DNA of 64,000 nt from Pyropia yezoensis (lineage: Eukaryota > Rhodophyta > Bangiophyceae > Bangiales > Bangiaceae): assembly GCA_009829735.1 (NCBI GenBank), contig CM020620.1, positions 17,752,354 through 17,816,353 of the forward strand. The letters are read 5' to 3'. The notes beneath the pieces were generated by a model. The model made no database searches and was not told the origin of the DNA. It was given only the letters and a program-made list of their open reading frames with translations. Positions within the stretch are counted from its first letter, which is position 1, and the number at the start of each line of letters is the position of its first letter. Shown here in pieces: positions 1,772-60,372 of this stretch. A program made the position numbers and the translations under genes.

Positions 1772-1772
1772 T

Positions 1773-4900: not shown

Positions 4901-5069
4901 CGACACCATCGTACCGGTCAACTGCGTTGTAAGCGGCCTCGCCCGGTAACAATCCAACTCCCGGTTATACACCAGGCAAGGCGTAACGGTGGCCAAAGGA
5001 GTCATTGACTTGCCGATGAACGATGTCGCGTTCATCACCGTCGCGAACTATAGGACCCACGCGGCAATA
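1932..5069 (+). pseudogene. Element B gag and protease block
   Basis: Gag starts at the ATG at 1932 (MSTQDTIG) with a long P/T/A-rich N-terminus. A capsid-like region follows at about 2600-3350 (FLTQFKA, then ELKALLLAGVPDY) and parallels the gag of elements A and D. A CCHC zinc knuckle (CMLCGDPSHWVADC) lies near 3885-3925 and a retropepsin-like protease with DTGAGPNLI near 4475-4505. The block is interrupted by the insertion of element C at 5070, and the coding sequence resumes after 12437. Broken fossil. Confidence 0.85.
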
Positions 5070-5942: not shown

Positions 5943-5944
5943 TG

Positions 5945-5962
5945 TGGTAGCTTCAAACAGCT
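5945..5962 (+). promoter_or_regulatory. Element C primer-binding site (putative)
   Basis: TGGTAGCTTCAAACAGCT begins two bases after the LTR end. The TGG start fits pairing with a tRNA 3' CCA. The tRNA was not identified. Confidence 0.5.
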
Positions 5963-6350
5963 TGACTTCCTTCTGTCGGTGACGTTGCGATTCCGTTTCC
6001 GATTTGGCCCCCCCTGCGTTTGTGCCCTCGTGCTGCCCCCGGTGTTCGGCGTGCCTCGGGCATTGTAATACGAACGCAGCGGGTTCCACCAATCACACCG
6101 AAAGAACACTGCCCTGACACTGCCCTGGTGGCCCCTGTCACGGTTTTTTTTCTTTTGGTCAACGGATTGTTGAAACCCTGTGGGTGCCAAATCAGGTTCC
6201 GAATATTCTTCCTCGGCGTTGGCGGGCGCCCCAACTTCCTCGGCGGCGCCTGCGCGCGCCCCGGCGGCGCGGGCGACCGCAGAGGCACGCGTCACCCCGG
6301 CGGCGCACGCTTCACCGGCGGCGGCATCCACGTCATCCTCTGTGCCGGCG

Positions 6351-6800
6351 ATGGCCGACTCGGCGGCGGCAGGCGCATCCAAGCCCCCCCTCTCGCGCAA
6401 GAGCAAGGGCCCCGCCACGCCCGGCTCGGCGGGCTCAGCCAGGGGGGGCCTGCTGCTGCACCCGCTGGACCCCTCGCGGCGATACACTGCGCCGCCCGCC
6501 CCACGTATTGGGCACATCCGACTCACGGCGGAACGCGCGGCGGAGCAGCGGGAGCAGCGCCGGATCGCCAAGAGCATCCCCAAGGACAAGTACGTGTGCA
6601 AGCCCTGTGGCGTGCGTTGCAACAGCCTGACAGTGCTGCTCGATCATCGCTGGTCGCGGCGCCACCGCAATACGGTCAACCGTCCAGCCACGCGCCCGCG
6701 GTGCGACATCTGCGATCGCGAATGCGAGACGGTGGAACACTTCGAACGCCTCCAGCGTGGCAAGGATCACCACGGCACGCTGGCGCGCCACACCAGTTGA
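6351..6800 (+). CDS. Extra zinc-finger ORF of element C, upstream of gag
   Basis: A 149-residue frame from the ATG at 6351; the same frame stays open upstream to about 6180 without another ATG. The N-terminal part is A/S/P-rich. It then has a first C2H2 motif of the U1/matrin (JAZ) spacing, CKPCGVRC followed by two His at x12 and x5, and a second C-x2-C motif starting CDIC with a His pair ending KDHH. Such fingers usually bind double-stranded RNA or RNA-DNA hybrids; that is family knowledge, not shown here. The position between the LTR and gag is unusual for Ty3/gypsy. It could be a captured host exon or an accessory gene. Function unknown. Confidence 0.55.
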   Translation: MADSAAAGASKPPLSRKSKGPATPGSAGSARGGLLLHPLDPSRRYTAPPAPRIGHIRLTAERAAEQREQRRIAKSIPKDKYVCKPCGVRCNSLTVLLDHRWSRRHRNTVNRPATRPRCDICDRECETVEHFERLQRGKDHHGTLARHTS

Positions 6801-7156
6801 CACCTCGCAACACCCCCCAGGATCTGTGCGAGAGGCGCGATTTGCCACGTGGATTTCCCCCCGCTTGGAAATCCGGCGCGACCCGACTCGGGCCCGCGCG
6901 CGGACGCCGGCGGCAAAATCCGATTGCACACTTGAGTCTGCGAATTCTGTTTCATCGCATCACTTGTGAACCATCAAATAGTGTTGCACATCTTTTGAAT
7001 CGTTGCAGCCACTACCGCTGCACACGTCCAGAATCTCGTGTACAACTACTTTGACCGATCAAATTACCTTGCACATCTTTAAGGACCTGCCTGGCGCCCA
7101 GCCGAAGTAAGTCGATTTAGATCTGCTTAGTTGATTTGATCGTTGCGAATTATACC

Positions 7157-10100: not shown

Positions 10101-11553
10101 CATGACCATCAACCAAAGTGATCAAGACCTTGCCACCTTAGAACAAGAGTACGACGCGGACCCCGAGTTTGCCGACCTAGTCAAAGACCCGGTATCTCCC
10201 TACCGGCTGCACATGAGGTTGTTGAAGCGAAGTGACCGTACGTGTATCCCTGTCGGTACTCTACGCCAAAGACTACTCCACGACTACCACGATGTCCCGT
10301 GCCAAGGGCACAAGGAAATCAAGAAAACAACGAAGGCCATTTCTTCCAAGTACTACTGGAAAACAATGCGGAAGGACATCCAAAGATATGTACAAACATG
10401 TGATTTGTGCCAGCGAAACAAGGCTAGCACCCGGTCACCTCTGGGTCACCTCAAACCTCAAGATCCCCCGAACCAACGATGGGCAAGTGTCTCCATGGAC
10501 TTTATCACGCCTCTTCCTCTGACTCCAAGAGGTCACAACGGGATTTACGTCGTTGTCGACCGCCTTTCCAAAATGATTCGCCTCGCCCCTATGAAGCCGG
10601 ACTGTACCGCGCCAGTTGCAGCACAGCTCTATCACGATCATGTCTATGGACACCACGGACTCCCTGCTTATGTCGTCTGCGACAGGGACCGCGTCTTCTT
10701 CTCGAACTTCTGGCGGTCACTCACGGAGATCCTCAAAGTCAAGGTCAAGGCATCTTCAGCCTACCACCCGCAAACTGACAGACAGACTGAGATTATGAAC
10801 AAGAAGATTGAGGAAATCTTGCGAAATTTCGTCAACCATCACCAGGGCGATTGAGACCTATTCTTGGTTGCTGCTGAAGTCGCCTACAACCGGTCGCCAA
10901 ATGCTGTGACGACGTACTCACCCTTCTTCCTGAACTACGGATTCGAACCCAAGACAGTTCCAATGGACATCCTCGACAAGTCAGAATCAAGTATACCTGC
11001 AGTGTTTGACTGGCTAAGCGGTCTCCAACGCGCTCAGGAGACTGCCATATCAGCCATCAAGAGTGCAAATGAGGCGCGCCCGGCGTACGCAAATCGCCAT
11101 CGCCGACCTTGCAAGATTGCCGTCGACGATCTGGTGCTTCTAAGTACCATACACCTTATGCCAGACGCCTTCCAAGGCGCTCGGAAGCTAATGCCCAAGT
11201 ACTCAGGACCCTATCGCGTCACTGAAAGCATTAATGATGTGACTTTCCGTCTGGATCTTCCCCAAGCGGTGCTTGATCGCAAGGTTCACAACGCCTTCCA
11301 TGCGAGCTTGCTAAAGCCGTACCGCGCTGACCCGTACGGCCGACTTCCTCCCGTTCCGCCTCTGGTTACATTTCCGGACGGTGCGGTCGAGTACGAAGTC
11401 GACTCCATCATACGGTCACGAAAGCGCCGAGGACGACTACAGTACCCCGTCAAGTGGAAAGGCTGTGACGTCAGCGAGAACTCCTGGCTGACAAAGCAAG
11501 ACCTTGCGCACGCACCTGAGGTTTTGGACGCGTTCCTTCGGCGCGCGTCCTGA
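7157..11553 (+). pseudogene. Element C gag-pol region
   Basis: Gag and pol read in one direction as a fused polyprotein, starting at ATG 7157 (MDPPNHSG). Parts in order: a Ty3-type capsid (about 7440-7850, with GEAFTWW), a CCHC knuckle (CLRCREKGHLAKDC, near 7970-8015), a protease (near 8170-8230), RT (about 8750-9300, CIDYRALNKATIKNAYPLPR), RNase H (about 9630-10000, TDASGYAVGAVL), an integrase zinc site and core (about 10300-10900), and a C-terminal chromodomain (about 11380-11540, VKWKGCDVSENSW). Fusion of gag with pol contrasts with the separate frames of D and E. Broken, about three breaks. Confidence 0.9.
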
Positions 11554-11564
11554 GGGGGGGGAGG
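11552..11564 (+). promoter_or_regulatory. Element C polypurine tract
   Basis: Thirteen purines (GAGGGGGGGGAGG) abut the 3' LTR, as expected for the plus-strand primer. Confidence 0.8.
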
Positions 11565-12437
11565 TGTAAGGATATGCCCCCTAAATCCCCAAGACTCTAG
11601 CTTCGGGGATAAGGACTCGGGCCTCTCCTTCCCTATCCTTCTCAGCCAACTCCTTCCAAGACGCATCAACTCCCTGGTAATCTGGAGATGCCGCGCTGTC
11701 CGGCCGAGATTCTACGGGTCGCGGGCGGTCAGCACGAGAGCCGCGGATCGGCTACCCGTTAGTACCCTGACCCATCCCCGGACGGATATTTTCTCTCCGC
11801 GGATCAGAGGACTAACGGACCACAGGACAATCCACATCTCTGACTCATCGGCCAGCCGGAACAATCTCCCCACGAGCCAATGGGAACGGCACGATTTGCT
11901 GACCCACCGGAGATTTTCGACCCGAAGACTGGCGTCTGGCTTACACGCCTCTGCGGCCTTTCCGGCCGACCGGCGTGTGAGGCCAGCCGCGCGGCGCTAC
12001 GAGCGCCGCACGCCGCCCCCGCCCCCGCTTGGGGCTGTCTGGTAGGGCGCCTTGGGGCGCGCACACCCACCTTGACTTCTTCTGAGAGCCTATGCCTTGT
12101 TTTGAGCCCATTGGTGCCGCCCCCCCGGTGGCACGGGCAATCACATGCTTTGGGGCACCCTGGGTGCCCCCCCGGGGGTATAAAATGCGTGAGAGCGGGC
12201 GCCAACCGGGGAGACCTCGGGGGGAACAACAAACACAGACACAACGACCTCCTTAACCCTCGACCCCCTCGACCCCCTCGACCCTCAACGACGTCACGCC
12301 CATCTTCTTCCTCACCCCCATCACTGTCACCCCGCCCGTCACCTTCCCCGCGCCCCGCAGCCTCATTGGCTTGCGCGGGCAGCTGACACCGTTCACCAGT
12401 ACGTTGAGGGCTGTTCGGGTGTGGGTGGTGCCTCACA
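11565..12437 (+). repeat. Element C 3' LTR
   Basis: 873-bp direct repeat of 5070-5942 with the same TGTAAG and CTCACA ends. The host sequence of element B resumes directly after it. Confidence 0.95.
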
Positions 12438-15400
12438 TAATACTACCGAAGAATTCCAAGATCGGCATAGCCGACCGGTTTGAAGGAGATATCCTTACAT
12501 TACGACCCGGCAACGGAACAGTACCACTTGATGCCATCGTCACGAGGACAGACGTCGCGACCCGACCAGGTAACACCGACTCCCTGGCTGAGGCAGACCT
12601 CAGCCACGCTCCGACCCCCATGTCGGGGGGAGTACGGCGCGTGCTAACAAAACATGAGGCTATGTGGACAGGGGGGGCCCTGGTGACCATTGGAGCAACC
12701 CAACACCGGATCGAACTTACCCCCGGGGCGCGCCCGGAGCGGTCCCAACCCCACTGCGCTGGACACATGCAACGACAGATCGTTGAAGGAGAAGTAATGC
12801 GTATGATGGACGCTTAAGTCGTGCGCCCATCCATGTCCGAGTGGGGAGCCCCAGTCGTGGTAATTCCTAAAAAGGGTAAGACCCCTCGGTTCTGCACCGA
12901 CTATCGACGTCTGAACTTGATTACCAAGAAGGACTCCTACCTCCTACCTCGTATGGACGAGTGCATTGATTCCCTAGGGGACGCCAAGGTACTCACTACT
13001 ATTTACTGCAACGCGGGCTACTGGCAGATACCCATAGCCGAAGAAGATATCCCAAAGACGGCATTCGTCTGTCACGCGGGAGTCTACGAGTTCCTTCGCA
13101 TGCCTTTTGAATTATCCAATGCGCCGGCCACCTTACAACTAGCCATTGATATCATCCTCTCGGGGGTGAAATGGAAACACTGCCTCGTGTACTTATACGA
13201 TGTCATCGTCTTCTCGCGTAGCATGGAGGACCATGTCAAGCACGTCGTTGAAGTCCTCGGCTTGCTACAGCAAGCCGAGGTCACTTTGCGACTCCGGAAG
13301 TGTGCCTTCTTTCAACGCACCGTCGAGTATCTGGGACACCAGATTACCCCCGGTAAACTAGGGGTTAGCGAAGCTAACACCCGAGCCTTGAGAGACGCGG
13401 AGTTTCCCCGCACCCAAACACAACTCAAGAGCTACTTGGGCATGTGCAACGTGTATCGTCGATTCGTGAAGAACTTTGCGAGGACAGCCCGCCCCCTGAC
13501 TAGATTGACGAGTAATCAACTTCCCAAGAACTTGGGACCACTATCGAGCGAACAAATGGCGAGCTTTGAGTCTCTCAAATCGTCGCTCTTAACCCCTGCT
13601 ATCCTTACCCTTCTTCGAGCAAAGGGGACCTTTGTCATCGACGTCGATGCTTGCGATACCCAGATAGGCTGCGCCCTGCTCCAATCGGCGGAGCCGATTG
13701 CCGAAGAGGAAGCGTCCCTACCGGAGCTGCACCCGGTAGGCTTTTTCAGCCGCACCTTGACTCCGGCGGAGGAGAACTGCAGCGCCACCGAGCGAGAGTG
13801 TCTCGGGGTAGTGTGGGTTATCCAACCCCTACGACCCTACTTGGAACGATCCAAGTTCATCGTACAGTCGGATCATGAACCGTTAAGATGGCTACTGAAC
13901 CTTGGCGACACGGATTCAGACGGTCACGGTCGACTAGCCCGGTGAAGGCTGAAGCTAGCCCAACAAAGCTTCCGCACCATCTACAAGGCGGGGTCCACCC
14001 ACCACATGGGTGACGCCCTGTCCCGATGGGATACTCCAAGCGGAGACGCCCGACCCATCGAAGAGGATATCCCCGTCGTCCTCGTCTGCCTGGCGGCTAA
14101 CCCGGGGCAACCCATCATCGACCACATCCTCGACGAGCTAGGCCACCGCCTAACCCCAGCTGTCTTCCGCACAGCTCAGGGCACAGACGGCGACTGCCGT
14201 CGATACCGAGCGAGCCTCGGCACCAGTAAGACTGGAGCCTTCACGGAAAACGCGGATGGTCTCATCATGCGGGTCGCCCCAATGGACGGGGCAGAGCAAA
14301 TCGTCGTGCCCGCCTCAATGAGACTGCTCATTCTTCGGCGGGAACACAACTCCCTCGCTGCGGGACACCCGGGAAAATCCCGCATGTTCGGATCCATGCG
14401 ACGCTATTACTATTGGCCGGCAATGGCGGTCGACATTGCAGACTACGGAAAGGGATGTACCCCCTGTGCCCAAAACAGATTGAAGTTTCAATCAAGGGTT
14501 ACCCCGATTCAACTATTCCCTCCCTATGGACCTAATGAACTTGTAGCATTAGATATCCTGGGACCCCTACCGCGAACATCCGCGGGCAATGTATACATTG
14601 CCGTTCTCAGCGATCGGTTCACGAAGCTGTCCAGGGCAATAGCCCTGCCAGACGTCGATGCCATCATCATCGTACGAGTCTTCGTGGACCATTGGGTATC
14701 AGCGTATGGGGTGCCCGAATGCTTACTCACCGACAATGGCTCCAACCTTATGTCCAAATTTTGGACCAGGGCCGTAGGACTGCTCGGGGTTAAACCCCTT
14801 CGCACAGCACACTACGACCCACAAACCAATGGACAAGGCGAGCGGTTTAACCGCACCCTCGTCAATATTCTAAAATGCTATGTGGCAGACCACACAGAGA
14901 CCTGAGACAGTTTACTGTCCATGGTCACGCTGGCGTATAACGCTAGACCACATAGGAGTACAAAGATTGCCCCACTCGAGTGGGTTATGCCCATGGGAGT
15001 AGGCAACTTAGCGCTGCCTCCGGGTAGATCTAAACAGTACGAACAACCCCGAGAGCGCAAGACCGAAATGCTACATCTCTCTTACTTGGCCAAGCTGCCA
15101 ACAATGATACCCAAGTTGAGGGAAGCCCTCGACCGAACACAAGCACGCTACAAACGTAACTTCGATGATTGCCTGACGATCCGGAACACTCACATAGTGA
15201 GTGGGGACTGGGTGTACATCAGGCACCAGGCCGTCTCTAGAAACAAAAAGCAACGCCCGATTAAAGAAACGTTCCAGGTGCTCTACAAAGACGGGCACTC
15301 CGTCGTGTTGCACACGGACCGGAACATCAAACGCATTAGCTTGAATGACGTCACACCAGCGCCGGGCGTAGCCCTGATGCCCGTGTCGAATACCCTCCCG

Positions 15401-15577
15401 CATTACATGACACGGGCTAGACCCGTGTCCGGAGGTCCGAATGGTCCGGCTTACGCCATCGAAGTAATCATCGGTCACGCCGATCCGAATGATCCCGATG
15501 GATTTTATGTTCTGATTCAGTGGGTTTGTTATGACCAACTGACATGGGAACCCGCGCATAATATGCCATTTCACTGA
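12438..15577 (+). pseudogene. Element B RT, RNase H, integrase and chromodomain block
   Basis: Continuation of element B pol after the inserted element C. RT lies at about 12740-13230 (DYRRLNLITKKDS; CNAGYWQIPIAEED), RNase H at about 13630-14000 (IDVDACDTQIGCALL), the integrase zinc site at about 14335-14480 (HNSLAAGHPGKS; CTPCAQN), the integrase core at about 14540-14900 (DILGPLP; TDNGSN) and a chromodomain-like tail at 15440-15577 (IEVIIGHADPND...WEPAHNM). Closely related to element D in layout and motifs. Broken fossil with several breaks. Confidence 0.88.
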
Positions 15578-15676
15578 CTGAAATCGTATATGGCGAAAAA
15601 TAATCTTATGTAATTGCATGAACACATTTTACTATCAACTACCATCGAAGCGCGACTAGCATCAAATGTTCTGGCC

Positions 15677-18390
15677 TTACGCCCCGGATGGACGTTGATT
15701 CCAGGAATTCACCTCTGTGGCAATGGCCATCGAGAGCTCACTGGAAGGGCGCTCCCCTTCCACCAACGCCTTTACGTCGTGCAGGAAAGTCTCCCAGTCC
15801 CCCGTCCGCCGCACCGTCGACACCTGCAGACGAAGACTGTCTATTAGTGAGGCGGAGTACCTCACGGGGCCCACCACCACAGCGCCGGGCTCCGCCCGGC
15901 GCCAGAAAACACTAACCCGCCCACGCATGACGCGGGCCATGATGGAGCCCACGCCATTATACCACGGTGCCGGGGGGGCCGACCCACCAGACACCCCGAA
16001 GCCTCGGGGCGGGGGGGCGTCCACCCCATCTCGGGAGTCGACCGGGGGGGGGGCGCGCGGCACCCAAGCCGCGCGCACCGCAGGCGGCGCCGGGGTAGCA
16101 CGTGCGCCAGCCCCCCACGGGCGCTGCGCCCGCCGAGCCCCCCCCCCCTGGCCCTCCGCCCGAGGCCGGCGAGCGGGAGTTACCCGCTGGCAGGCCCGGT
16201 ACGGAAACCAGGACATAACGGCCGGGGGGGGGGTTCGCACCGTACTTGGCACGCCAAGCGTGACCGCCTCTAACCCCTCCGCGAGGTATAATCCTCCCCC
16301 GGCCCCCTCCTCAGATGAGGGGACCACACGCACCGACGCACGGATGACATCCGTGTTCGAATCGTAGGGAGGCAACAACCTCACCTCCCACCAGTCCACG
16401 GCATCGTGGCAGGCGAGGTACCCGGACACCTCCAATCCGCGGTCGGTGCCCGCGCAAAGCGCATCCACCCCCACCTGCGAGCGGTATTCTCGAACAACCA
16501 CGGGGACGCGAAACAAGCGGTGCAGCCGCTCAACGGCGAGCACCCACGCCACAACAACTACACATAGATATTCTATGGTAGCCACTCCCCACAAGACATG
16601 GCGCGGACACCGCGCCAACAAACTGCTGTAATACAGCACCGCCCGCGGAGCGGGAGTGCGAAAAGACCGCGGCGTTTCCCACCCCCCGAGCAGCCATTCG
16701 GGGGGCACCACCAACACGTCCGGGGGAGCCCCGGCACCGGTCGCCCACGCGGTGAGATGGCCCCGCACGTCCGGGCGACGCCCGTCGACGAAGATGCCAT
16801 GATTATGGCGCCAGCTCGTCTGGGCTTTGAGGACAGCGGCCGACGAAAAAGGCCCGTCAAACTCAAGGTACGGAGGGCGCAACGCGGGATGGTATTCCAT
16901 CCCGGAAAACGACCCAGCACGGGGCTCTCGCCCCCCCCATGTGCATGCCTCCAGTTCGGCCACACGGCGCGCGACACGCGCCGGGTACGAAAGATCGGCC
17001 GGTTCGGCAGCATGCGCCAAGTCAGTGACGCCGAAATCGGTAGAGTACACCGCACGAGGGAAATCCCTCAGTCGGTACTGCCAGGCCACAGCTTGACGAT
17101 CTACGTCAAGCTGACACACCCTGGCGTGCTCGTGGCGCTTCCCGGTTGGAGCGCGCACCAACCGGGCCAACTCCACGAACCACGCTTGCGGGCCGGCGGG
17201 GAGCAACAGCTCAACGCTGACACCCGATGTGCCGGTGTGCACGGGCACCAGACGTTCGACGACGGGCCAAGGCGGTGAACCTGCCGCCTGCATCGTCACA
17301 TGGCCATACATTAGCGGCGATATAGGCAAAGCCTGCACCGCCTCCACCAACAGCATCTGCGAGCGGGTCGGGACATACCGACCCGACCCGGCCTCATCCT
17401 CGACAGGCCCCACTTCCACATCTACACTCATCGTCACGGACTCCGTGGCAGCCGTGGGCCGAGGAGCTAAGAACATCCTGGGTACCGTGGCACCGAGTGC
17501 AAATCTCCCCCACCACCCTCCACGTCCCTGGGGGTGCCAGCCACCACGATAGACGAGCTCTCCGAGGTCACCCCTCGCGTCGCGACAACGGCCGCCAACT
17601 GACGCTCAGCGGCAGGCACCGCCTGCGCAACACGAACGGCAGCCAAAGCCGACGCGCGGGCACGCTCAACGTCCCGCGGGGGCGGAGGGCGCAAAGGGGC
17701 ACCCCTCCCAACGGGACCCATCACGCCAGACGGCGGGCCCGCCACGACGGGCACCGGGGGACGCGAGTGAGTACCCGCTCCCCGGACGGTAACCACCCGA
17801 GAAGACCCAGGCCCCGCCCCACCGGGACCGGCGACGCCGCCGGACGACTCACCATCGGTGACCGCCAGGTCCTCGGCGACAGGCGACGGGCCGGGACTCG
17901 CACCCGATTGGCTCCAGCGACCGCCGTCGGAAACCGACCCACCGCCCGCCACCGCCGGTGCGACCGCGGAAGACGATTTGACAGCCAGACGCGCAGATCG
18001 GAGCAAGGCCGGAGCGCCTCCGCGCCGCCCAGTCGACCCACCCCGACGGGAAGATCCCGTCGAGCGCAGGCCAGCCGTCGCAAGACGACGGGAAACGGTA
18101 GCCGTCGTGCCCGCCGAAGGCGCCGGTAAACGCGAAGAGCTTCGCCCAGATGCAGGCCCCGCCTGCCTCTTGCTGGATCCCGACGATTCGCCGTCGCTGC
18201 TTCAGGTCAGCGCCCGTACCTCCCCCGCCGACGTCGGCGCCGACCCTACTGCTGCAGGAATAGCGTACGCACCGACAACGCCCTCACCCTGCGTCACTTT
18301 ACACGGCAAATCCGTACCGGAGGGCGACGGCAGCCGGGCGCCCGTCACGTCGAGGGACTCCTCATCGAGGTACTCAGACCCGTCGTCCAT
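15677..18390 (-). pseudogene. Element B antisense ORF (unknown family)
   Basis: Read on the minus strand, opposite to pol and tail-to-tail with it, about 100 bp from the pol end. The longest open part (15677-17476) is homologous to the antisense protein of element D: SWRHNHGIF against SWRRNHGVM, HDAVDWWEVRLLPPY against HDAVNWAGVLALPPY, and WYNGV...RVMRG against WYEGV...RAMRG. An acidic start (MDDGSEYLDEESLD, ATG at 18388-18390) matches the acidic start of the D protein (EEEEDLLIGEEMEDD). No known domain recognised. Not open throughout; about two or three breaks. Confidence 0.7.
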
Positions 18391-18757
18391 CACGACAGGC
18401 CAAGAGTGAGATCGGCGCTGCCGACCCCACCGCACCTCCCAAGACAGGGCGGGGCCGCTCTCATACACGCCACAGGAGGGCGGCCCTCCACGAACGGCGT
18501 GCCTCACGAGCGGAGGAAATCGCAGGACGGGGCCACACGAGAGGTCGCGAAGCGGTCCCACGCGGCCGTTCGGCCCCACATACGCACCCGCCTCAAAAAG
18601 GTCGGAAACCGACTCCCCCTCCCCGCCCGCGCGTACAGGACGCCCCGAACCGCAGGGCTCCCCCCCAGACGATAAAATCGCCGGGGTGCAATCCCTTCGC
18701 GAACGGAGCAACCGCCACCCAAATCTGAACAATCAGATTCGCACCGCTTGATTACAA

Positions 18758-19108
18758 CATCTTCAATTGAGCAACACCAATCGGCAACTCGGAGCTACCG
18801 GGGGCCACTTCCCAGGCGAATCCTGGGAAGCTCCAGCTAACACCTGTCCACGGGCGCCAGACCCGGTTAACCGGCAGGGTAGTTGGAGGGTATTTAACGA
18901 GGGTCTAGAGGATAGATTGCTAGCGACGGCGAACGGCTGGGATGCCTGCCGCCGAGCGGCCAACAAACCCCTCCCCTTTGGGCTTCCGCTACGGTCTGGT
19001 TTCTTGGTCTAAGGCCTGCAACCCTACCCATTCGATGTGCTTTGGTGTGTATCCCCCCAGGAGAGTGTTCCCTGTGCCTCGTCCTTGACAGCTTTTTACT
19101 GTGCTACA
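18758..19108 (+). repeat. Element B 3' LTR
   Basis: Direct repeat of 1421-1771 with 9 differences in 351 bases, ending GTGCTACA. Its outer start could not be placed exactly. Element A coding sequence resumes at 19109. Confidence 0.85.
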
Positions 19109-50799: not shown

Positions 50800-51162
50800 T
50801 GTAGCACAATAGGAATCCGTCGCACGTCCACTCTCAGGGAACACTCACCAAGGGGGATCGGCACCAACGTCACCGGGAGGCCAAGGTTTCTGTCCTTGGA
50901 GCGCAAGCCACGGGACCAAGATGGGAGCCCAAATGGGAGGGGTTTGTTGTTCTACCTTGGCCGGCGGTGGATTCGCCGCCGGCCCCCTCGTTATAAACCC
51001 TCGGAGACACTACTAACTACCCTCCACCCCAAGATGCAAGTCCCTCTGGTCATACGTAACTTATAGATACCGTGACCAGTACGAACTATCAAATTCAAAG
51101 TTAAGGGTTAGAAGTAGCCCCCCTGATATTAGGGTCACAATACGGACAACCATATTGCTACA
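50800..51162 (-). repeat. Element D 3' LTR
   Basis: 363 bp with perfect 7-base inverted ends (TGTAGCA...TGCTACA), next to a polypurine tract read on the minus strand. The partner LTR is not in the sequence (N gap), so the call rests on ends and position. A hairpin (GGCCGGCGG with CCGCCGGCC, 50959-50984) lies just before a TATA-like site. Confidence 0.75.
50991..50997. promoter_or_regulatory. Symmetrical TATA-like site in element D LTR
   Basis: TTATAAA on the plus strand, TTTATAA on the minus strand. Read on the plus strand it points toward the antisense ORF about 750 bp away; read on the minus strand it would serve the usual U3 promoter. Confidence 0.35.
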
Positions 51163-51174
51163 TATCCCCCCCTT
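51163..51174 (-). promoter_or_regulatory. Element D polypurine tract
   Basis: On the minus strand, AAGGGGGGGATA abuts the LTR start TGTAGCA, fixing the sense direction of the element as that of pol. Confidence 0.65.
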
Positions 51175-51748
51175 AGATTCGGCCCGTCCTCGGGTCGAGT
51201 TGCATTCGGGTTACCGAATGTAAGTGGGTCGCGTGACCGTTTACCCGTCGGGTGGGGCTTTGCGCCCCGTCGCGACAGACACCCCTTTTCGAGGTTGTCT
51301 CAGGGGGGTGCCCCCCTTTGTGTGGTACACACACACGATCCGTTTTCCGGACCGTTAAATTCCCGATGCGGGTTGTGTTCACGCCCCCCCTTTCCGAGGG
51401 GTGGTGCAAGCGGATCCGCCACCAGGTGCCTGGTGGTAGGGGGGCCCCTCTCGTGTGGACGATTGAGTGGGGGGCGGGGGCTGCCCGCGTTGCGTGGGGG
51501 CGGTTGGGGGTGACCCCCCTTACTTACCCCGTGTGTGGGTGTGGCCCCGTCCCGCCCAGGTGCCTGGGTGGAGCGCGGTCGTAGCCCCGTGGGGCGCGGG
51601 TCGACCCGCGTGCCTGCGGCGCTTCTCGTGGCCGTTTGTGGTCATAAGCGCGGGTGTCCGCGCTTCCCTGGCTCGTCCCGGTTATCCCACCGTACCGGGT
51701 TGTAGCCGTCGACGGCTTGTGGGCGCGGGGGATTCCGCACCCGTTATC

Positions 51749-54196
51749 ATGTCCTATCCCCAGGTGCTTGAAGAGGAGGAAGACCTCCTGATCGGGGAGG
51801 AGATGGAGGACGACGCGCCTGTCGGTCCCGACGCCGCGCGTTACGGGGTGAGCTCGTCTGACGACGACGGGCCTGCGGTGTCCGTCCGTCTGTCGGCCGG
51901 AGGACTGTCGTCCGTGTGCAGCGGCACGACGGTGCCGTCGGCCGGAGGTCAACCCGGCGGTCAACCGCGCGCGGCGGCTTCTACCCCCTCTCTGCCGGCT
52001 GCCCGGATGGGGCCTGGTGCCGGTGCCGGCTCACCGCAGGTACCTCAAGATGGTCCGCCCTGCGGCGGAGGTGGCGACCCGCAGCCGACTCCGGCTGGTC
52101 AAGGTGGTCCGGGGGTCCGGGCGGTGACTCCTCGAGGCGGTCCCGACGTTGACGCGGGTGGTGGTGGCGGTGCGACACCCGGTGCGGTGGGTCAAGACGG
52201 TGCGGGTGTCCGCACGGCCGGGGCTCCGGCTCCGGAGGCTGTCCAAGTGCCTTCCACTTCCGAGGCGGGGGCTACGCCGACGGGTGGTGCCGGCGCCGGT
52301 ACCATACCTGCGGTGCCGCGGGTGTCGAGCGGTCAAGACGCTCCTTCTCCCATGGCGGTTGACACCGGGAGTTACTCCGGGCGGGCGCCCGCCCTTCTTC
52401 TTCCTCCTCGGCCTCGTCCATCTCCGACGTCGGCCCCTCTGCCGGTGGTGCGTCCCCCGGCGCCCCCGATTCTTCCTGGTCCTGCCCGGGTTGCCCCGTT
52501 GGGTGGCGGCGTCGCCGTGGCGGCGGGTCAACCCGCCATGTCGGTGTCCGACTTGGTGGCTCGGGTTCGAGGCCTCACGGTGCAAGAGTCGATGGAGTCC
52601 GATGGGCGTATGCGGGTGGACTTCCACCTGGTGCATCCCCGTGGAGAATCCTCCCGGCGCGTCAAGGTGGACCCGTGCTGGGAGCGGGAGTTGGTGCGGC
52701 TGGTCAACCAGCCGAACGCGGTCCGGGTGGAACACCATTGGATCCTGAGTCAGCCGGACGACCGGCATGCGCAGCTCTGGCGCACCCGGGTGGGACGGGG
52801 TGAGGTCTACCTCGACCCCAACTTCGGGGTCTGCGACTTGATTGCCCCCGCGTTGCCGCGGGAGATTGACTACCCGGCTAGTGCTCGGGGGATTGCGGCG
52901 GCGGCGGAGCCGGTTGCGTTTGGGGAGACGGTGAGCCGTACCGGTCGGTATCCCGACTTTGACTACTACCCGGGGGTACCCCCGTATCTGTCGTTGACGG
53001 CTCCCTACCCGCCCATGGCGGGGTTGAAGTCGGCGTCGAGTTGGCGACGTAACCATGGTGTCATGGCGGATGCGTTCCGCACGGATATAACGTGTGCGTT
53101 GCAGACCGGCAACGGTCGTGCTCCGGTATACACTCCCGTGCGCCCGCCGCTATGGCAGGAGGGGTGGGAACCCGCCCCTGCTTTCCGGCTTGACACCGGC
53201 TCCTGCCTCCGATACTTCGGGAGTGTGTTGGCCTCCCGGCCGGTCCACCCGTTGCAGGGTACCTTCACCCTTGAGGTTACCCTCGGGCAGGCTTCATCCT
53301 TCTTGCTGTCCGTCCGCCGGCAGGGTCGTCTGTTTCATCTTCCGACGGGTGTCCGTCGGCACATCGCGCAGTTGGGCGTGGATCTGATAGCCGCCAAGAC
53401 CGGGTTGGCCCGGGAGTTCGAAGCCCTGCTGGCTGTTCACGATGCCGTGAACTGGGCTGGGGTGTTGGCCCTTCCCCCGTACCGGGACCCGCAGGCTGGG
53501 GCTTCCCCCTTGCCTCGTCACTCGTTGCGTGTCCGGCGTACTCAGCCGGGTGAGCCTAGTTGCCATGGGTGGGCGTCCACCGAGGCCGTTCCTGACCTGG
53601 GTATTCCCATGGTTATCCATGACCCTCTTCAGGTCCTTGCTCCGTGGTTCGGTTACCCGATGCCGGCGGCGATTGGCCGTCGTCCCCGAGAGTGGGGCTC
53701 TGTGGGTGGGGAGCGTGAGGTGTCCCGTCGTCGGGCGGAGTACCGCCGTGGTTACGGTGGAGCCCCTTCGGTAGGGTCCTACCGGGCCTCGTATCAGGTG
53801 CCACCGGCTCCGGTGGTAGCCGTGTCGGCTCCTGTGGCTCCTCTGGCTGCGCCAGTGTCACCTCCCGCTCCTGTCCTACATGACGGGGGTCCCCGTCTCT
53901 GGTATGAAGGCGTTGACGCCCTTGTTACCCGCGCAATGCGTGGGGGTCTCTCTGTTAGCTGGGGGGATATCCCCCCAGGTGCTGCGCTGGTTGGGTCAGC
54001 GCGTTGCTTTGGTGGCGTGCTGGACCGCCTCCAGAAAGCTCTGGAGGACGTGGAGGCTGGCCGCAGCACCCTCGTCCAGCTATGCACCGAGGTAACTCGG
54101 GTGGTCGACCGTCGTGACATTGCCGACCGGTGGAGCACGGAGGTATACGCGCTTACGCGTGAGTGGCCTCCCTCGGGCAGTGGGTCTACCCACTGA
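51749..54196 (+). CDS. Element D antisense ORF, unknown 815-residue protein
   Basis: Opposite in strand to pol and tail-to-tail with it. The start is set at the ATG at 51749 because the protein then begins with an acidic stretch (LEEEEDLLIGEEMEDDAPVG) also seen at the start of the element B homologue; the frame is open further upstream to 51467. Residues ~25-260 are G/P/A/T-rich and probably disordered. Residues ~265-640 look folded, with ERELVRLVNQPN, DPNFGVCDLI, SWRRNHGVM (about 430) and HDAVNWAGVLALPPY (about 563). A C-terminal block (about 715-815) has WYEGVDALVTRAMRGG. No zinc knuckle, protease, envelope or polymerase motif and no signal peptide is seen. Plant Ty3/gypsy elements with antisense ORFs between pol and the 3' LTR are known (for example Grande), but I see no similarity. 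Function unknown. Looks whole. Confidence 0.7.
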   Translation: MSYPQVLEEEEDLLIGEEMEDDAPVGPDAARYGVSSSDDDGPAVSVRLSAGGLSSVCSGTTVPSAGGQPGGQPRAAASTPSLPAARMGPGAGAGSPQVPQDGPPCGGGGDPQPTPAGQGGPGVRAVTPRGGPDVDAGGGGGATPGAVGQDGAGVRTAGAPAPEAVQVPSTSEAGATPTGGAGAGTIPAVPRVSSGQDAPSPMAVDTGSYSGRAPALLLPPRPRPSPTSAPLPVVRPPAPPILPGPARVAPLGGGVAVAAGQPAMSVSDLVARVRGLTVQESMESDGRMRVDFHLVHPRGESSRRVKVDPCWERELVRLVNQPNAVRVEHHWILSQPDDRHAQLWRTRVGRGEVYLDPNFGVCDLIAPALPREIDYPASARGIAAAAEPVAFGETVSRTGRYPDFDYYPGVPPYLSLTAPYPPMAGLKSASSWRRNHGVMADAFRTDITCALQTGNGRAPVYTPVRPPLWQEGWEPAPAFRLDTGSCLRYFGSVLASRPVHPLQGTFTLEVTLGQASSFLLSVRRQGRLFHLPTGVRRHIAQLGVDLIAAKTGLAREFEALLAVHDAVNWAGVLALPPYRDPQAGASPLPRHSLRVRRTQPGEPSCHGWASTEAVPDLGIPMVIHDPLQVLAPWFGYPMPAAIGRRPREWGSVGGEREVSRRRAEYRRGYGGAPSVGSYRASYQVPPAPVVAVSAPVAPLAAPVSPPAPVLHDGGPRLWYEGVDALVTRAMRGGLSVSWGDIPPGAALVGSARCFGGVLDRLQKALEDVEAGRSTLVQLCTEVTRVVDRRDIADRWSTEVYALTREWPPSGSGSTH

Positions 54197-54510
54197 GGAG
54201 TGCTATTTGTTTGTGAGGGAGAGGGCCCCGGCAACCCTTATGGTCGCCGGGTAGTAGTGAGTATAAACTCATCCCCCGCTGGGGGCATTCCTTGCCTCTG
54301 TTTGCTGCCCTGGGGAGTACCCCTTCTGGCTCAGTGGTGCCTTGCCTCCCGCCCAACTTCTTCCGGTTGGTTCATGCTTGGGGAGGTTATCCTCCCTCAC
54401 TTTGTGTCTTGGCTTGGGGAGGTCATCCTCCCGTGTAAGCTCCCTAGTTACTTCGATATTATCGGAGTTAGCCGTTACCTTTAAGTTAACTTATTAAGGT
54501 TCATGTTTTT

Positions 54511-54606
54511 ACTTAGTTACCTAAGCTTAGCTCTACTTAGTTACCTAAGCTTGGTTCGACTTAGAAACCTAAGTCTGATTTGACTTAGAAACCTAAGTCT
54601 GCCGTA
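54511..54606. repeat. Four 24-bp tandem hairpin repeats between convergent genes
   Basis: ACTTAGTTACCTAAGC starts at 54511 and 54535, and ACTTAGAAACCTAAGT at 54559 and 54583, an exact 24-base period. Each unit forms a short stem (ACTTAG with CTAAGT). The array sits between the antisense ORF stop (54196) and the pol stop (54678), just after another palindrome (AAGTTAACTT near 54483). A bidirectional terminator or poly(A) boundary is a reasonable inference. Confidence 0.75.
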
Positions 54607-54677
54607 ACCATGTCACACCCTACTTAGTAGGTATAAGCCTCACCCCCCAACAGCCGATGTCGGTGTCGGTTGGGTTG

Positions 54678-57600
54678 TTACAGTAGGCGTCGTCGCCTCA
54701 TGTAAGGCATGAGTAGTTGGCGGGGTATATTCGCCGCCTGTTCCCAGGTGGGTGAGTCGTATCCGACCCACATAACCTTGACGTACCAGGGTCCTGGTAT
54801 GTCCGGGTCGGTGTGTCCGACCACGCTCTCTACTTGGTATGGAATCCCATCCGGTCCCACCGGGTCATCCGACCGGTGGGTTGTAAGAGCTTCATGTAGC
54901 AACCCAGCCGGTACCGGCTGAGGCTGTTCCGGCTTCGGAGCAGGTGTGACATCATTCATACTGATGCGTTGGATCTCCGTATCGGAGTGTAAGATAACAG
55001 AGTGGTCATCTCTGTGGAGGATCTGGTACGGTCCCTTGACCGGTTGCCTAAGCTTGTTCCCTCGGAACTTCTGGTGTCTGATATAGACCCAGTCACCTGT
55101 TACCAGGGTTGCGTTGCGCACCCGTAGTCGGGCGTCGAAGTTCTTCTTGTATCGAAGTTGTGTTCTGTCAAGGGCACCCTTGAGCTTAGGAATCATCCAC
55201 GATAGCTTGGCCAACCAAGCTAGGTGGATGCGTTCGGCGGGTCGGCCCTTCGGTGTATCATACCGAGTGCACCTGCCTGGCGGCAGCGTCAGGTTACCGA
55301 CGCCTAGTGGCATGACCCACTCCAGCGGAGCAATGTTTGTGCTCCGATGTGGCCTGGCATTGTATGCCAGGGTGAGTACGGACAGAAGCCTGTCCCAAGT
55401 GTTCGTGTGCTCTGCCACGTAGCACTGTAGCATGTTGACGATGGTGCGGTTGAACCGCTCCACCTGCCCGTTGGACTGCGGGTGGTAGTCGGATGCCCGA
55501 CGTGGTTCGATACCGAACATGCCCAGGACCTTCGTGCAGAATGCCGACGTAAGGTTTGCTCCGTTATCGGAGAGGAGTTGCTTCATGACTCCGTATGCAC
55601 TGATCCAGTGGTCAACCACTGCGTTCATAATCGTGTATGCCGTATCATTCGGGATGGCTGCCGCTCGTGACAGCTTGGTGAATCGGTCAGACATGACCAG
55701 GATGTACCTGTTCCCTTCTTCCGTTACCGGAAGTGGCCCGAGTATGTCGATAGCGACTTGCTCGTTGGGCCCATCGGGTGGGAATAGCTTCATGGCAGAC
55801 GCCTGCCTATGTAGACTCATGCGGTTACGCGCACAGGGGTGGCATCCCCTTACGTGGTCGACCACGTCGACGGCCATTGCTGGCCAGTAGAAGAACCTTC
55901 GCATTGCTGCGAACATACGTGAACCCCCCGGGTGTCCGGCTGTAGGGTTCTCATGTTCTCGTTCCATGACGGCTTGCCGTAAGGACACGGGAACCACGAC
56001 TTGGTGTCGTCCATCGGCGGGTGCCCGCCGGTATATGAGTCCGTCTTCGTTCTCGGAGAAGATGCCGGCCGTACCGGCCAGGAGGTTAGCACGATGACGT
56101 CTACAGTCATCGTCGTTGGCCTGTGCCTCGCGGAAGTCCGCGAGGGTCAATGGGCACGCAAGGTGTGCCATGGTATGGTCAGCCATACCCTGGGTAGCAT
56201 TACCCACCATGCACACCGGTACTACCGGGATGTCCTCGTCCACCGGGCGGGTATCCCCGCTCGGTGTGTCGAGTCGAGACAACGCGTCTCCGAGGTGGTG
56301 GGTTGACCCAGCCTTATACACCGTGCGGTAGTCGTGCTCGGCCATCTTCAGCCTCCATCGGGCTAGCCTCCCATGGCTATCGGAATCCTTGTCACCAAGG
56401 TTGAGGAGCCATCGTAGGGGTTCGTGGTCGGACCTCACGATGAACCTGGAGCCCTCCAGGTATGGACGGAGCAGTTGCACTGCCCATATAACTCCGAGGC
56501 ATTCACGCTCGGTGGCACTATAGTTCCGCTCAGCCGGGTTGAGTGTCCGGCTGAAGTACCCTACCGGACGTAGGTCCGGGATAACGTTATCGGTACCGAT
56601 CAACGTCTCTCCCTGTAACAGGGTGCATCCCACTTGTGTATCACACGCATCGACATCGATGACGAAGGTACCCCGTCTATGCGGTAACGCAAGGATGGGT
56701 GGGGCTAGTAGGGCTCGCTTCAGCGACTCGAATGCCTCCTCTTCGCTAGGCGAAGGGGGTTGGAGTACCTTGGGTAAGGTACTGCTCGTAAGAACCGTTA
56801 ACGGTTTAGCTATCCGAGCGAAGTCCTTGACGAACCGTCGGTATACATTGCACATTCCCAGGAAGCTCTTGAGCTGCGTCTGGGTGTTAGGGAACCGGGC
56901 ATCCCGGAGTGCCCGGGTATTGGCTTCGAGTACCCCTAGTTTACCAGGGGTTATCTGGTGGCCCAGATATTCGACCGTCTGTTGGAAGAAGGCGCACTTC
57001 TTCAGACGCAGGGTTACCCCGGCGTTCCTCAAGAGGGTGAGTACCTCGTCAACATGTTGTACATGGTCATCCATGTTACGCGAGAAGACGATGACGTCAT
57101 CGAGGTACACTAGGCAGTTACGCCACTTCACCCCAGACAGTATGATGTCGATAGCCCGCTGGAATGTAGCGGGGGCGTTGGACAATCCGAAGGGCATCCT
57201 TAGGAACTCGTACACTCCACTGTGACAGACGAATGCCGTCTTGGGGATATCCTCGTCCGCCACCGGGATCTGCCAGTATCCGGCATTGCAGTCGATGGTG
57301 GTAAACACCGTAGCCTCCCCCAGGGAGTCGATGCATTCATCCATCCTTGGTAAAGGGTATGAGTCCTTCTTGGTAACCAAGTTGAGGCGTCGATAATCGA
57401 TGCAAAACCGAGGGGTTTGATCCTTCTTCGGCACAATAACGACTGGGGCACCCCATTCCGACATCGAAGGTCGGATCACCTTAGCTTCACTCATCCTCTT
57501 CACTTCTCCATCAACGATCTCTCGTTGCATAGGTCCCGCTCGGTGCGGTTGTGAGCGGGCGGGTCGTGCGCCTGGTACCAGGTCTATACGATGTTGGGTT

Positions 57601-58844
57601 GCCCCAATGGTCCCCAAGGCCCCGCCTGTCCACATAACGTCATGCTTTCTTAGCATCCGTCGTACCCCTTCGGCTACCGAAGGGGGAAGGTGGTCGAGGT
57701 CAGCCTCGGCCAGTGCCTTCAAGGCCTCTTGGTCCTTTGGCGGCAGGTCCGCCGGAGCCGCCGATGGGTTAGGCTTCCCGTCATCGGGTTGCTGTCGCTC
57801 GGTGGTCTCGGCGACCGCCAGTACTTCAAGTGGTTCCACTTGACCTTCCTTATCAGGGGTAAGGATATCTCCTTCGTAGAGTTCGGCAATCCCGAGGATA
57901 GTTCCCTTCGGGAGGGTGACTGCCTTACGGCGGTAGTTCGCCATCACTAGGAGGGACGACCCTTCTGCTGGGAGGTCTATGAGACCGTTGGCCATGGTCA
58001 ACCCATGGCGCTTGTACGTCCGTAGGTTGGACTGGACTCTGCAGATGCCTGCGAGGTCGCAGTTAACCGGGAGGACTGTCTCTGACAACGGCTCAAAGCG
58101 AGTCCGCTTGGCCAACCGAAGTGTCTTCGGCTCGACGCTTGTGTACACCTCAGCCACGTTAACGTGGCTTCCTTGTAGCGTCAGGTCCCTGACGATAGCC
58201 GTGTGTCCTCGCTTCGTCCCGTCGGCTTCTTGAAGCTCGACGGTCCTCCGGCCTGGCCGGATTGCATCAACGTGAACGTTGATGAAGGTGCACCCCAGTA
58301 TGCAGGGCACCGATAGCGTTTCACATACCAGGAAGTCAACTTCCGTGGTGAGATCCCCGATGGTAACCCGCAGCGACATCGCTGCGGTCGTACGAATGAG
58401 TCGACCATTCGCGTCCTTGATGGTAGGTCCTCGAGTCACTCTGACTCGTGGAAGCCACTTGTCCGGGAGGGTATCCTTCCGGATAAGGTTGGGTCCAGCC
58501 CCTGTATCCAGTACAGGGTAGTACGATCGTGTCGACTGGGAGTCAACCCCCAGTGTGGCTGATACCTTGAAGTTCTCCAAGGTAAACAACACATGTCCTA
58601 CACCGATATCCGGTGTAGCTCGGGCATCCTGAACGGGGCCCTTGTCTGGTTCAACGTGACGGGGCTTCCCGTCCTTTCCTCCCAACCTTGGAGGTTGGTC
58701 ATCAATCCCCTGACGCCGTGTCGTCGGGGCCGGAAGGTGTACCCGGGGGTTGATGCGGCGTCGGCTCAACCGCGCTCTCCGTGGGGCTTTCCCCGCGGTA
58801 CTCCGGGGTGGCTTGCTTGGGTAACCCCAGCGCCCCCCGGTCAT
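54678..58844 (-). CDS. Element D pol (protease, RT, RNase H, integrase, chromodomain)
   Basis: 1388 residues from the ATG at 58844, eight bases after the gag stop. Protease DTGAGPNLI at about residue 111; RT FCIDYRRLNLVTKKDSYPLP and YLDD at about 580; RNase H IDVDACDTQVGCTLL at about 725; integrase zinc site HENPTAGHPG...CHPCARN at about 965-1010; integrase core AIDILGPLP (about 1030), LSDNGANL and the QVERFNRT block. A C-terminal chromodomain-like module follows (YQVESVVGHTDPD, then VKVMWVGYDSPTWE, about 1335-1388), which in chromoviruses guides integration to heterochromatin. The frame is open from end to end and all domains expected of Ty3/gypsy are present, so it looks whole. Confidence 0.92.
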   Translation of the reverse strand: MTGGRWGYPSKPPRSTAGKAPRRARLSRRRINPRVHLPAPTTRRQGIDDQPPRLGGKDGKPRHVEPDKGPVQDARATPDIGVGHVLFTLENFKVSATLGVDSQSTRSYYPVLDTGAGPNLIRKDTLPDKWLPRVRVTRGPTIKDANGRLIRTTAAMSLRVTIGDLTTEVDFLVCETLSVPCILGCTFINVHVDAIRPGRRTVELQEADGTKRGHTAIVRDLTLQGSHVNVAEVYTSVEPKTLRLAKRTRFEPLSETVLPVNCDLAGICRVQSNLRTYKRHGLTMANGLIDLPAEGSSLLVMANYRRKAVTLPKGTILGIAELYEGDILTPDKEGQVEPLEVLAVAETTERQQPDDGKPNPSAAPADLPPKDQEALKALAEADLDHLPPSVAEGVRRMLRKHDVMWTGGALGTIGATQHRIDLVPGARPARSQPHRAGPMQREIVDGEVKRMSEAKVIRPSMSEWGAPVVIVPKKDQTPRFCIDYRRLNLVTKKDSYPLPRMDECIDSLGEATVFTTIDCNAGYWQIPVADEDIPKTAFVCHSGVYEFLRMPFGLSNAPATFQRAIDIILSGVKWRNCLVYLDDVIVFSRNMDDHVQHVDEVLTLLRNAGVTLRLKKCAFFQQTVEYLGHQITPGKLGVLEANTRALRDARFPNTQTQLKSFLGMCNVYRRFVKDFARIAKPLTVLTSSTLPKVLQPPSPSEEEAFESLKRALLAPPILALPHRRGTFVIDVDACDTQVGCTLLQGETLIGTDNVIPDLRPVGYFSRTLNPAERNYSATERECLGVIWAVQLLRPYLEGSRFIVRSDHEPLRWLLNLGDKDSDSHGRLARWRLKMAEHDYRTVYKAGSTHHLGDALSRLDTPSGDTRPVDEDIPVVPVCMVGNATQGMADHTMAHLACPLTLADFREAQANDDDCRRHRANLLAGTAGIFSENEDGLIYRRAPADGRHQVVVPVSLRQAVMEREHENPTAGHPGGSRMFAAMRRFFYWPAMAVDVVDHVRGCHPCARNRMSLHRQASAMKLFPPDGPNEQVAIDILGPLPVTEEGNRYILVMSDRFTKLSRAAAIPNDTAYTIMNAVVDHWISAYGVMKQLLSDNGANLTSAFCTKVLGMFGIEPRRASDYHPQSNGQVERFNRTIVNMLQCYVAEHTNTWDRLLSVLTLAYNARPHRSTNIAPLEWVMPLGVGNLTLPPGRCTRYDTPKGRPAERIHLAWLAKLSWMIPKLKGALDRTQLRYKKNFDARLRVRNATLVTGDWVYIRHQKFRGNKLRQPVKGPYQILHRDDHSVILHSDTEIQRISMNDVTPAPKPEQPQPVPAGLLHEALTTHRSDDPVGPDGIPYQVESVVGHTDPDIPGPWYVKVMWVGYDSPTWEQAANIPRQLLMPYMRRRRLL

Positions 58845-58852
58845 CCTTCCTC

Positions 58853-59857
58853 TTACTCGTTTCCCGCCCTTGGTAGGGTGCTGTCCGCCGTGACATCCGG
58901 CTGAGGAGGTGCCCCCTCGACGGCCAGTACTCCACCTGGAGCTGGCTGCCTACCCGGTGCGGGTCCGGGTGCTCGGGGGGGATACCCCCCGGTGGATGCC
59001 TTGCGTTGCGCCGCTGCCCGCCGAGACTCCTCGGGGATGAGTGGGCAGGAAGACACCCAGTGCTGGGGATCCCCACACAACATACATCCGGACGTGCCGG
59101 TCCCCCCTTGAGGTCGCATCGGGGTAGCCCCGTAGCTACGGTTGCCTCCCTCGGGCGCCCGAGTGCCTGCTCCCTGGTAGGCCTTGGGTCCTTGGGTCAA
59201 CCGGAACATGGACTCCCCCAACCGGTTGGGTCGGCCCGCAATCTGCGGGGGTGCCTCCGTGCGCACCGCCCATGTTGGCAAGGGTTGGTGCGGGTTACCC
59301 GTCACCGGGGAGTACCCCGTAGTCCGCACATACGGGACGCGCCGTCCCGTTCCTTCGTTGACCTGGAACTGGGTTCCAGCCGGGGCGATGTACGCTACCG
59401 TACCATGTTCATCAATCACCGGCGTCGCCGGTAGCAACAGGTGGCCCTGTTGGTCGACTAGAGGGTCACCCTCACCAATAGGGGTATGTTCGGTCGCCAC
59501 CAGTACTGGTGCGGCCTTACGTTCCACCTTCTCTTGCCTCGGTACCGGGGTAAGACTGGGCTTGCCTCCCTCACCCTTGGGCTTCGGGGCCAAGGCACAC
59601 TCCGGGTGTAGAACCCGGTAGGCGTCACCTAGGGACTTGCACATATGCATCAGTCGACTGAAGTTCGTCCGTGCCGTGTTGGCTCCCCGTGCGGATATCC
59701 GCACGTAGTTGGGTACTCCTGCGAACAGGATGGCTCGTAGCTCCCCTTCTCCGAGGAGCTTCCCCAGCTCGTAGTCGAGCTCTTGGATCCGGCGTCCAAA
59801 CATCTCCTCATCCTCCCAGGACTGGGCGGTGGCAGTGCGAAGGGCCCGATAGTGGTC
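58853..59857 (-). CDS. Element D gag, C-terminal part (N-terminus in gap)
   Basis: The visible part runs from the N gap to a TAA at 58853. It shows the end of the capsid (ELDYELGKLLGEGELRAILF, then NFSRLMHMCKSL), a P/G-rich linker and one CCHC knuckle (CMLCGDPQHWVSSC) before an A/P-rich tail. gag and pol are separate frames with a purine-rich spacer (gaggaagg) between the gag stop and the pol ATG, unlike the fused gag-pol of element C. Confidence 0.85.
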   Translation of the reverse strand, partial: DHYRALRTATAQSWEDEEMFGRRIQELDYELGKLLGEGELRAILFAGVPNYVRISARGANTARTNFSRLMHMCKSLGDAYRVLHPECALAPKPKGEGGKPSLTPVPRQEKVERKAAPVLVATEHTPIGEGDPLVDQQGHLLLPATPVIDEHGTVAYIAPAGTQFQVNEGTGRRVPYVRTTGYSPVTGNPHQPLPTWAVRTEAPPQIAGRPNRLGESMFRLTQGPKAYQGAGTRAPEGGNRSYGATPMRPQGGTGTSGCMLCGDPQHWVSSCPLIPEESRRAAAQRKASTGGYPPRAPGPAPGRQPAPGGVLAVEGAPPQPDVTADSTLPRAGNE

Positions 59858-60357: not shown

Positions 60358-60372
60358 TCCGCACCCGTTATC

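What the first reader, a model, noticed from the sequence alone, without database searches (positions are those of the whole stretch)
51749..54196. Conserved antisense protein gene in a Ty3/gypsy chromovirus lineage
Elements B and D differ clearly in sequence, yet each carries a large ORF between pol and the 3' LTR on the strand opposite to pol (51749-54196 in D; 15677-18390 in B). The two proteins share an acidic start, the blocks SWRxNHG, HDAVxW...LPPY, FGVxDL and WYxGV...RxMRG, and a G/P-rich N-terminal third, while much of the rest has diverged. That pattern suggests protein-level selection. No known domain is recognised. Antisense ORFs in this position are known from some plant Ty3/gypsy elements, but this family appears different. 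It could control copy number, silencing or movement.
Basis: partly seen in the sequence, partly recalled or inferred. Interest (0 to 1): 0.9.

Follow-up and report, generated by a model that had tools for sequence, protein, structure and literature searches.

The report
Antisense accessory gene in seaweed retrotransposon
A family of jumping genes in nori seaweed carries, besides its usual genes, a real extra protein gene written on the opposite DNA strand that natural selection keeps intact; what the protein does is not yet known.

Summary
The D open reading frame is real: 815 codons at 51749-54196, on the strand opposite to gag-pol, between pol and the 3' LTR of a Ty3 element in what is most likely Pyropia yezoensis. 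The B counterpart is not an open gene in the window (stop plus frameshift). The gene is multicopy: a 40-nt core tag occurs 793 times and a pol-end tag 883 times, reversed controls 0. Selection acts on the protein: core dN/dS between subfamilies is 0.21-0.29, the lowest of six frames in each of four pairs tested; the mirror frame is also low but full of stops. Relatives were found in Pyropia vietnamensis (48%) and a few unnamed contigs, nowhere else searched. No Pfam, NCBIfam or PHROG family reached its cut-off; both AlphaFold models are unusable. The arrangement matches the known 'aORF-3R' genes of plant and fungal Ty3 elements (Grande, RIRE2, Retand, Boty), but the Retand domain (TRP28) was not found and no known relative was detected. 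Most likely function, inferred only: a nuclear regulator of the element's own family made from an antisense transcript. The stretch beyond the N gap (60358-64000) looks like an assembly duplicate of D.

The parts
51749..54196 (+). antisense accessory ORF (aORF), 815 aa plus stop
52646..53548 (+). constrained core of the aORF (about aa 300-600)
50800..51162 (-). 3' LTR of element D (TGTAGCAC...TGCTACA on the + strand); inner end read by eye
51163..51176 (-). polypurine tract next to the 3' LTR (read by eye)
51163..51748 (+). 586-nt leader between LTR and aORF, holding two CAGGTGCCTG palindromes (51423, 51557) and a 16-nt palindrome (51595-51610); candidate promoter region
   Evidence: promoter role inferred
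54197..54677 (.). spacer between the two converging stops, with two pairs of short direct repeats
54678..58949 (-). pol: protease-like, RT, RNase H, integrase, weak chromodomain-like end
58853..59857 (-). gag part, cut by the 500-N gap 59858-60357
15677..18390 (-). broken B-type antisense gene: 599-aa ORF 15677-17476 and an N-terminal remnant in another frame with a stop
1421..19108 (+). decayed element B with 351-nt LTRs (1421-1771, 18758-19108), holding a nested element 5070-12438

Best explanation
SHOWN: 51749-54196 is a protein-coding accessory gene of a high-copy Ty3 family in a Pyropia genome, placed antisense between pol and the 3' LTR and kept by selection on its protein. INFERRED: it is transcribed from the integrated copy by an antisense promoter in the 3' LTR or the 586-nt leader; its product works in the nucleus as a regulator of the element's own family, with the acidic N-terminus recruiting host factors and the conserved core and Arg-rich linker contacting nucleic acid or chromatin; the net effect favours propagation, for example by keeping LTRs expressed. 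I put 'real, selected protein gene' at 0.95 and the nuclear-regulator role at about 0.4; the confidence below is for the whole statement.
For: Open 815-codon frame; 50 of 55 scored genome copies without a stop (best-scoring copies only); 793 core tags against 883 pol tags, controls 0; 65 of 100 listed pol tags have the aORF tag in the expected place. Core dN/dS 0.21-0.29 against six subfamily members, binomial p 6e-5 to 2e-17 for five of them, lowest of six frames in the core for four of four pairs tried. Shared variants in 39 intact copies: core 12 silent to 2 changing. Acidic conserved start, Arg-rich linker, no strong hydrophobic segment in D. Grande's aORF-3R product is reported nuclear with its own promoter (PMC7264820, parts 1-2 read).
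Against: No expression, localisation or binding data. No domain and no usable fold. pol is under tighter constraint (0.10-0.12 in the three more divergent copies). The N-terminal region is barely constrained (shared variants 6 silent to 12 changing at aa 60-200; dN/dS above 1 in 4 of 5 close pairs on few changes). In the C-terminal part the mirror frame is a little lower than the true frame in 3 of 4 pairs. 35 of 100 listed pol tags have no exact aORF tag nearby.
Confidence: 0.4

Rival explanations
1. A particle or structural role: the protein is a second Gag-like or packaging/transport factor that joins virus-like particles or the pre-integration complex.
For: It evolves about as fast as gag (B against D: aORF 33%, gag about 40%, pol 63%) and has an Arg-rich linker.
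Against: No similarity to the element's own gag part (best E 0.26); no Pfam match; being made from a separate antisense mRNA gives it no direct link to the packaged RNA (reasoning).
Confidence: 0.2
2. A self-limiting factor: the protein lowers copy number of its own family, in the manner recalled for the Ty1 p22 restriction factor.
For: Antisense position lets dosage rise with copy number; antisense retroviral HBZ lowers sense expression (PMC10186651, passages).
Against: A self-limiting gene is not expected to be kept by selection among spreading copies, yet variants that have spread are constrained in the core; the family is very abundant.
Confidence: 0.15
3. Only the antisense RNA matters: convergent transcription makes double-stranded RNA that limits the element, and the open frame is incidental.
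For: The aORF mRNA would be complementary to the 3' part of the genomic RNA; antisense RNAs of LTR elements can act so (PMC7264820; PMC12786077, passages).
Against: Silent changes far outnumber expectation in this frame only; the frame is open over 815 codons. RNA effects may still act on top.
Confidence: 0.05
4. A recently captured host gene carried as a passenger.
For: Gene capture by LTR elements occurs in plants (PMC7264820).
Against: Three protein searches gave no named host relative: the P. vietnamensis hits are hypothetical proteins whose context was not seen. The gene is shared by subfamilies and two species and is constrained.
Confidence: 0.05

Closest known systems
aORF-3R genes of plant and fungal Ty3/gypsy elements (Grande gene23, RIRE2, Retand ORF4, PvRetro13, Boty), reviewed in PMC7264820 (parts 1-2 of 3 read)
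   Same: Place (between pol and 3' LTR), antisense orientation, presence in many copies, no known function
   Different: No sequence relative among known families was detected; host is a red alga; the pol ends in a chromodomain-like stretch
Retand-lineage antisense TRP28 proteins (PF04195), PMC11963269 (abstract and passages seen)
   Different: PF04195 not found in 7 proteins (E up to 10) nor anywhere in this genome; Retand is described as non-chromovirus; no tandem-repeat array in the D leader or spacer, only two- and three-copy short repeats
HTLV-1 HBZ (PMC10186651, passages seen)
   Same: Antisense gene at the 3' end of a provirus; N-terminal activation domain reported for HBZ, acidic N-terminus here
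   Different: No bZIP or other domain match; 815 aa and unrelated sequence
VANC anti-silencing proteins of plant VANDAL DNA transposons (recalled, from no call)
   Same: Fast-evolving non-mobility gene acting on its own family: a model for the proposed role
   Different: DNA transposons; no sequence comparison made
[quoted passage not shown]
   Same: Accessory gene on the strand opposite to the mobility gene, in algae
   Different: DNA transposon; recognisable domains, none of which matched here

Membership tests
aORF-3R accessory genes | ORF between pol and 3' LTR, antisense to gag-pol | tested here: met
aORF-3R accessory genes | present in most copies of the family | tested here: inconclusive
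   Tag totals 793 against 883; direct pairing shown for 65 of 100 listed pol tags, 35 unresolved
aORF-3R accessory genes | conserved like other element proteins | tested here: met
   Core dN/dS 0.21-0.29, pol C-terminus 0.10-0.12; B against D identity 33%, gag about 40%, pol 63%
aORF-3R accessory genes | own antisense transcript; nuclear product (as for Grande) | not testable with these tools
   no RNA or localisation data
Retand TRP28 proteins | PF04195 domain | tested here: not met
   7 proteins, E up to 10; own genome, 0 matches; none of the 14 control genomes passed the cut-off either, so there was no positive control
Env-like aORF | sense orientation and transmembrane segments | tested here: not met
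   Antisense; highest 19-residue hydropathy 1.37 in D and 1.39 in P0004, though 2.24 in B
HBZ-type antisense regulator | bZIP domain | tested here: not met
   no Pfam match
Chromovirus | chromodomain at the integrase C-terminus | tested here: inconclusive
   Chromo E 0.011, below cut-off; weak PDB matches to chromodomain proteins, E 0.4-1.7
Chromovirus | RT falls in the chromovirus clade | not tested
   no RT tree built

The most novel reading that the evidence does not exclude
The antisense protein is a family-specific anti-silencing or transactivating factor: its core recognises sequence or chromatin of its own LTR and leader (for example the CAGGTGCCTG pair), while its fast-evolving N-terminal region tracks host factors. 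It would be a retrotransposon counterpart of the VANC proteins of plant DNA transposons.
Probability: 0.15. Interest if true: 0.75.

Novelty: new member of a known kind. Interest (0 to 1): 0.45.

Why it matters
Antisense accessory genes of Ty3 elements, known from plants and fungi, still have no assigned function (PMC7264820, PMC11963269). This case adds a red-algal protein family with several subfamilies, hundreds of genomic copies and a clear selection signal. A protein with no detectable kinship in the same place suggests that the arrangement arose more than once and answers a shared need. In a genome of about 108 Mb the expression and binding tests are practical. The arrangement itself is known, which limits the surprise.

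Tried and rejected
Rejected: the gene lying inside a very long LTR. The repeat 51734-55380 / 60358-64000 suggested it, but the right-hand copy starts at a 500-N gap and differs from D by 10 single-base indels and no substitution over about 3.65 kb; D and E show equal numbers of substitutions against two other copies (35 and 35, 46 and 46). I take it as an assembly duplicate. Rejected: B against D dN/dS as evidence (saturated).

Led nowhere: two AlphaFold runs (mean pLDDT 34.8 and 32.7), so no fold search was made; genome contigs and viral-contig scans, 0 relatives among 18 and 50 pattern matches; Rfam, 0 matches at gathering score; PDB profile search, 4 matches at E 0.049 to 0.96, none convincing. 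DUF6214 matched weakly in 2 of 7 proteins (E 0.017 and 0.087, below cut-off) and was not pursued. Literature: ten searches answered. In the listed titles and abstract openings I saw no paper on an antisense gene in a red-algal Ty3 element; that covers the held library only.

Full report
Where the window comes from. The window is contig C3:17752354-17816353 of a 107,475,971-base assembly of 11 contigs. Its three large contigs are 43,592,136, 34,331,705 and 29,385,039 bases. These match the 43.6, 34.3 and 29.4 Mb scaffolds of the Pyropia yezoensis genome paper (PMC7423979, passages seen), so I take it to be that species. That paper reports 48% repeats, LTR elements predominant; the word 'antisense' does not occur in its main text.

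The element. D runs on the minus strand: a gag part (58853-59857, cut by a 500-N gap) and pol with RT, RNase H and integrase (54678-58949) and a weak chromodomain-like end. Then, on the plus strand, comes the 815-codon ORF 51749-54196. To its left lie a 586-nt leader and the 3' LTR, 50800 to about 51162. The outer LTR end is where similarity among D and 29 other fetched copies stops; the inner end was read by eye. D's 5' LTR is not seen, because of the gap. The stretch 60358-64000 is best read as an assembly duplicate of D: 10 single-base indels, most in short base runs, and no substitution.

The B counterpart. B is a decayed element with 351-nt LTRs 97.4% identical and another element nested in it; its pol has stops. 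Its antisense gene is broken by a stop and a frameshift. D and B proteins align over 475 positions at 33%. B gag is about 40% and its RT-to-integrase part 63% identical to D's, so the antisense protein evolves about as fast as gag.

Copies and relatives. 50 of 55 scored genome copies of the D protein have no stop inside (only the best candidates are scored). A 40-nt core tag with up to 3 mismatches occurs 793 times (387 + 406) and a pol-end tag 883 times (432 + 451); each reversed control gives 0. Of the 100 pol tags listed (all exact, on C1), 65 have an exact aORF tag 1470-1501 nt away on the expected side, and none has one on the other strand within 3 kb. The other 35 are unresolved, and 23 of the 88 aORF tags compared lack an exact pol tag. 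Outside this genome the protein is found in Pyropia vietnamensis (48% to D; 10 of the 12 proteins, the query among them) and in unnamed contigs (P0002, P0003, P0011). Scans of prokaryote genomes and of viral contigs found none.

Selection. Against D, the core (aa 300-600) gives dN/dS 0.212 (L061), 0.217 (L062), 0.233 (L056), 0.240 (L033), 0.252 (L045) and 0.285 (L054). Binomial p is 6e-5 to 2e-17 for the five of these six that were tested. For four of them all six frames were tried. In the core the true frame is lowest each time. The mirror frame, which shares its third positions, gives 0.33-0.41 with 11-13 stops; the other four frames give 0.88-4.9. In the N-terminal part the true frame is again lowest, but only at 0.40-0.59. 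In the C-terminal part the mirror frame is slightly lower than the true frame in three of the four pairs, so that part alone does not decide. The pol C-terminus gives 0.10-0.12 for the three more divergent copies, so pol is under tighter constraint. Within 39 intact 815-codon copies (chosen as intact and close to D, so a biased set), variants shared by at least two copies are 12 silent to 2 changing in the core (aa 310-600) and 6 to 12 at aa 60-200 (Fisher p 0.0045). In 4 of 5 close pairs N-terminal dN/dS exceeds 1, on few changes. So the core is constrained and the N-terminal region nearly free.

Mosaic origin. D's N-terminal part is closer to L062 (dS 0.23, over 133 codons) than to L033, L045, L054 and L056 (0.56-0.59). 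Its core is closer to those four (0.08-0.16) than to L062 (0.77). Subfamilies appear to have exchanged pieces of this gene.

Protein features. In D, its close subfamilies and P. vietnamensis the start is a conserved 'DLL' flanked by acidic residues. A variable region with conserved LLLPxRP and DLVAxVR follows, then the core, an Arg-rich linker (net +5, +6 and +9 in D, P. vietnamensis and B) and a C-terminal region. No Pfam, PHROG or NCBIfam family reaches its cut-off. AlphaFold gave mean pLDDT 34.8 and 32.7; I draw nothing firm from them.

Regulatory DNA. The leader has two CAGGTGCCTG sites 134 nt apart, the only ones in the window. Upstream of the start codon both are kept in L002, L056 and L033, one in L045, L054 and L034, none in the two B copies, among the nine loci looked at. 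A 16-nt palindrome lies at 51595-51610. These are candidates only.

What it works like. Antisense genes between pol and the 3' LTR are a recognised class, aORF-3R, in plants and in fungal Boty (PMC7264820, parts 1 and 2 of 3 read). By that review Grande's product is nuclear and transcribed from its own promoter. Retand elements carry TRP28 proteins there (PMC11963269, abstract and passages). TRP28 was tested and not met. By position this gene belongs to the class; by sequence it stands alone so far.

Mechanism. The antisense mRNA is not the packaged RNA, so the protein cannot gain preference for its own copy through packaging; selection then points to action on the family or the locus, most simply in the nucleus. 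Constraint on variants that have spread argues that the protein helps spread. That is reasoning, not a result. I put a nuclear regulator first at about 0.4, a particle role at 0.2 and self-limitation at 0.15.

Noticed in passing
L033-L036 (G000:C2, about 9.88-9.90 Mb): Head-to-tail array with a 3,489-nt period whose unit is LTR, leader, aORF and the first 125 nt of the spacer, without gag or pol. Four identical spacer-LTR junctions, none elsewhere in the genome at up to 3 mismatches. In L034-L036 the ORF stops at aa 761.
   Followed up: partly
60358-64000: Right of the 500-N gap is a second version of 51734-55380 with 10 single-base indels and no substitution: probably an assembly duplicate, so its frameshifts are not evidence of decay.
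   Followed up: yes
window aORF N-terminus and L033, L045, L054, L056, L062: Subfamilies are mosaics: N-terminal part and core of the antisense gene have different closest relatives.
   Followed up: partly
42812-45997: A 1,061-aa plus-strand ORF with weak AAA-domain matches, both below cut-off.
   Followed up: no
34869-40066: Another Ty3-like element with gag and pol ORFs on the minus strand; its pol frame ends early in the integrase region.
   Followed up: no
P0020 (P. vietnamensis MMPV_000838): Annotated protein that seems to fuse the start of the antisense protein to a gag like that of the window's 38030-40000 element, probably a gene model across a nested insertion.
   Followed up: no
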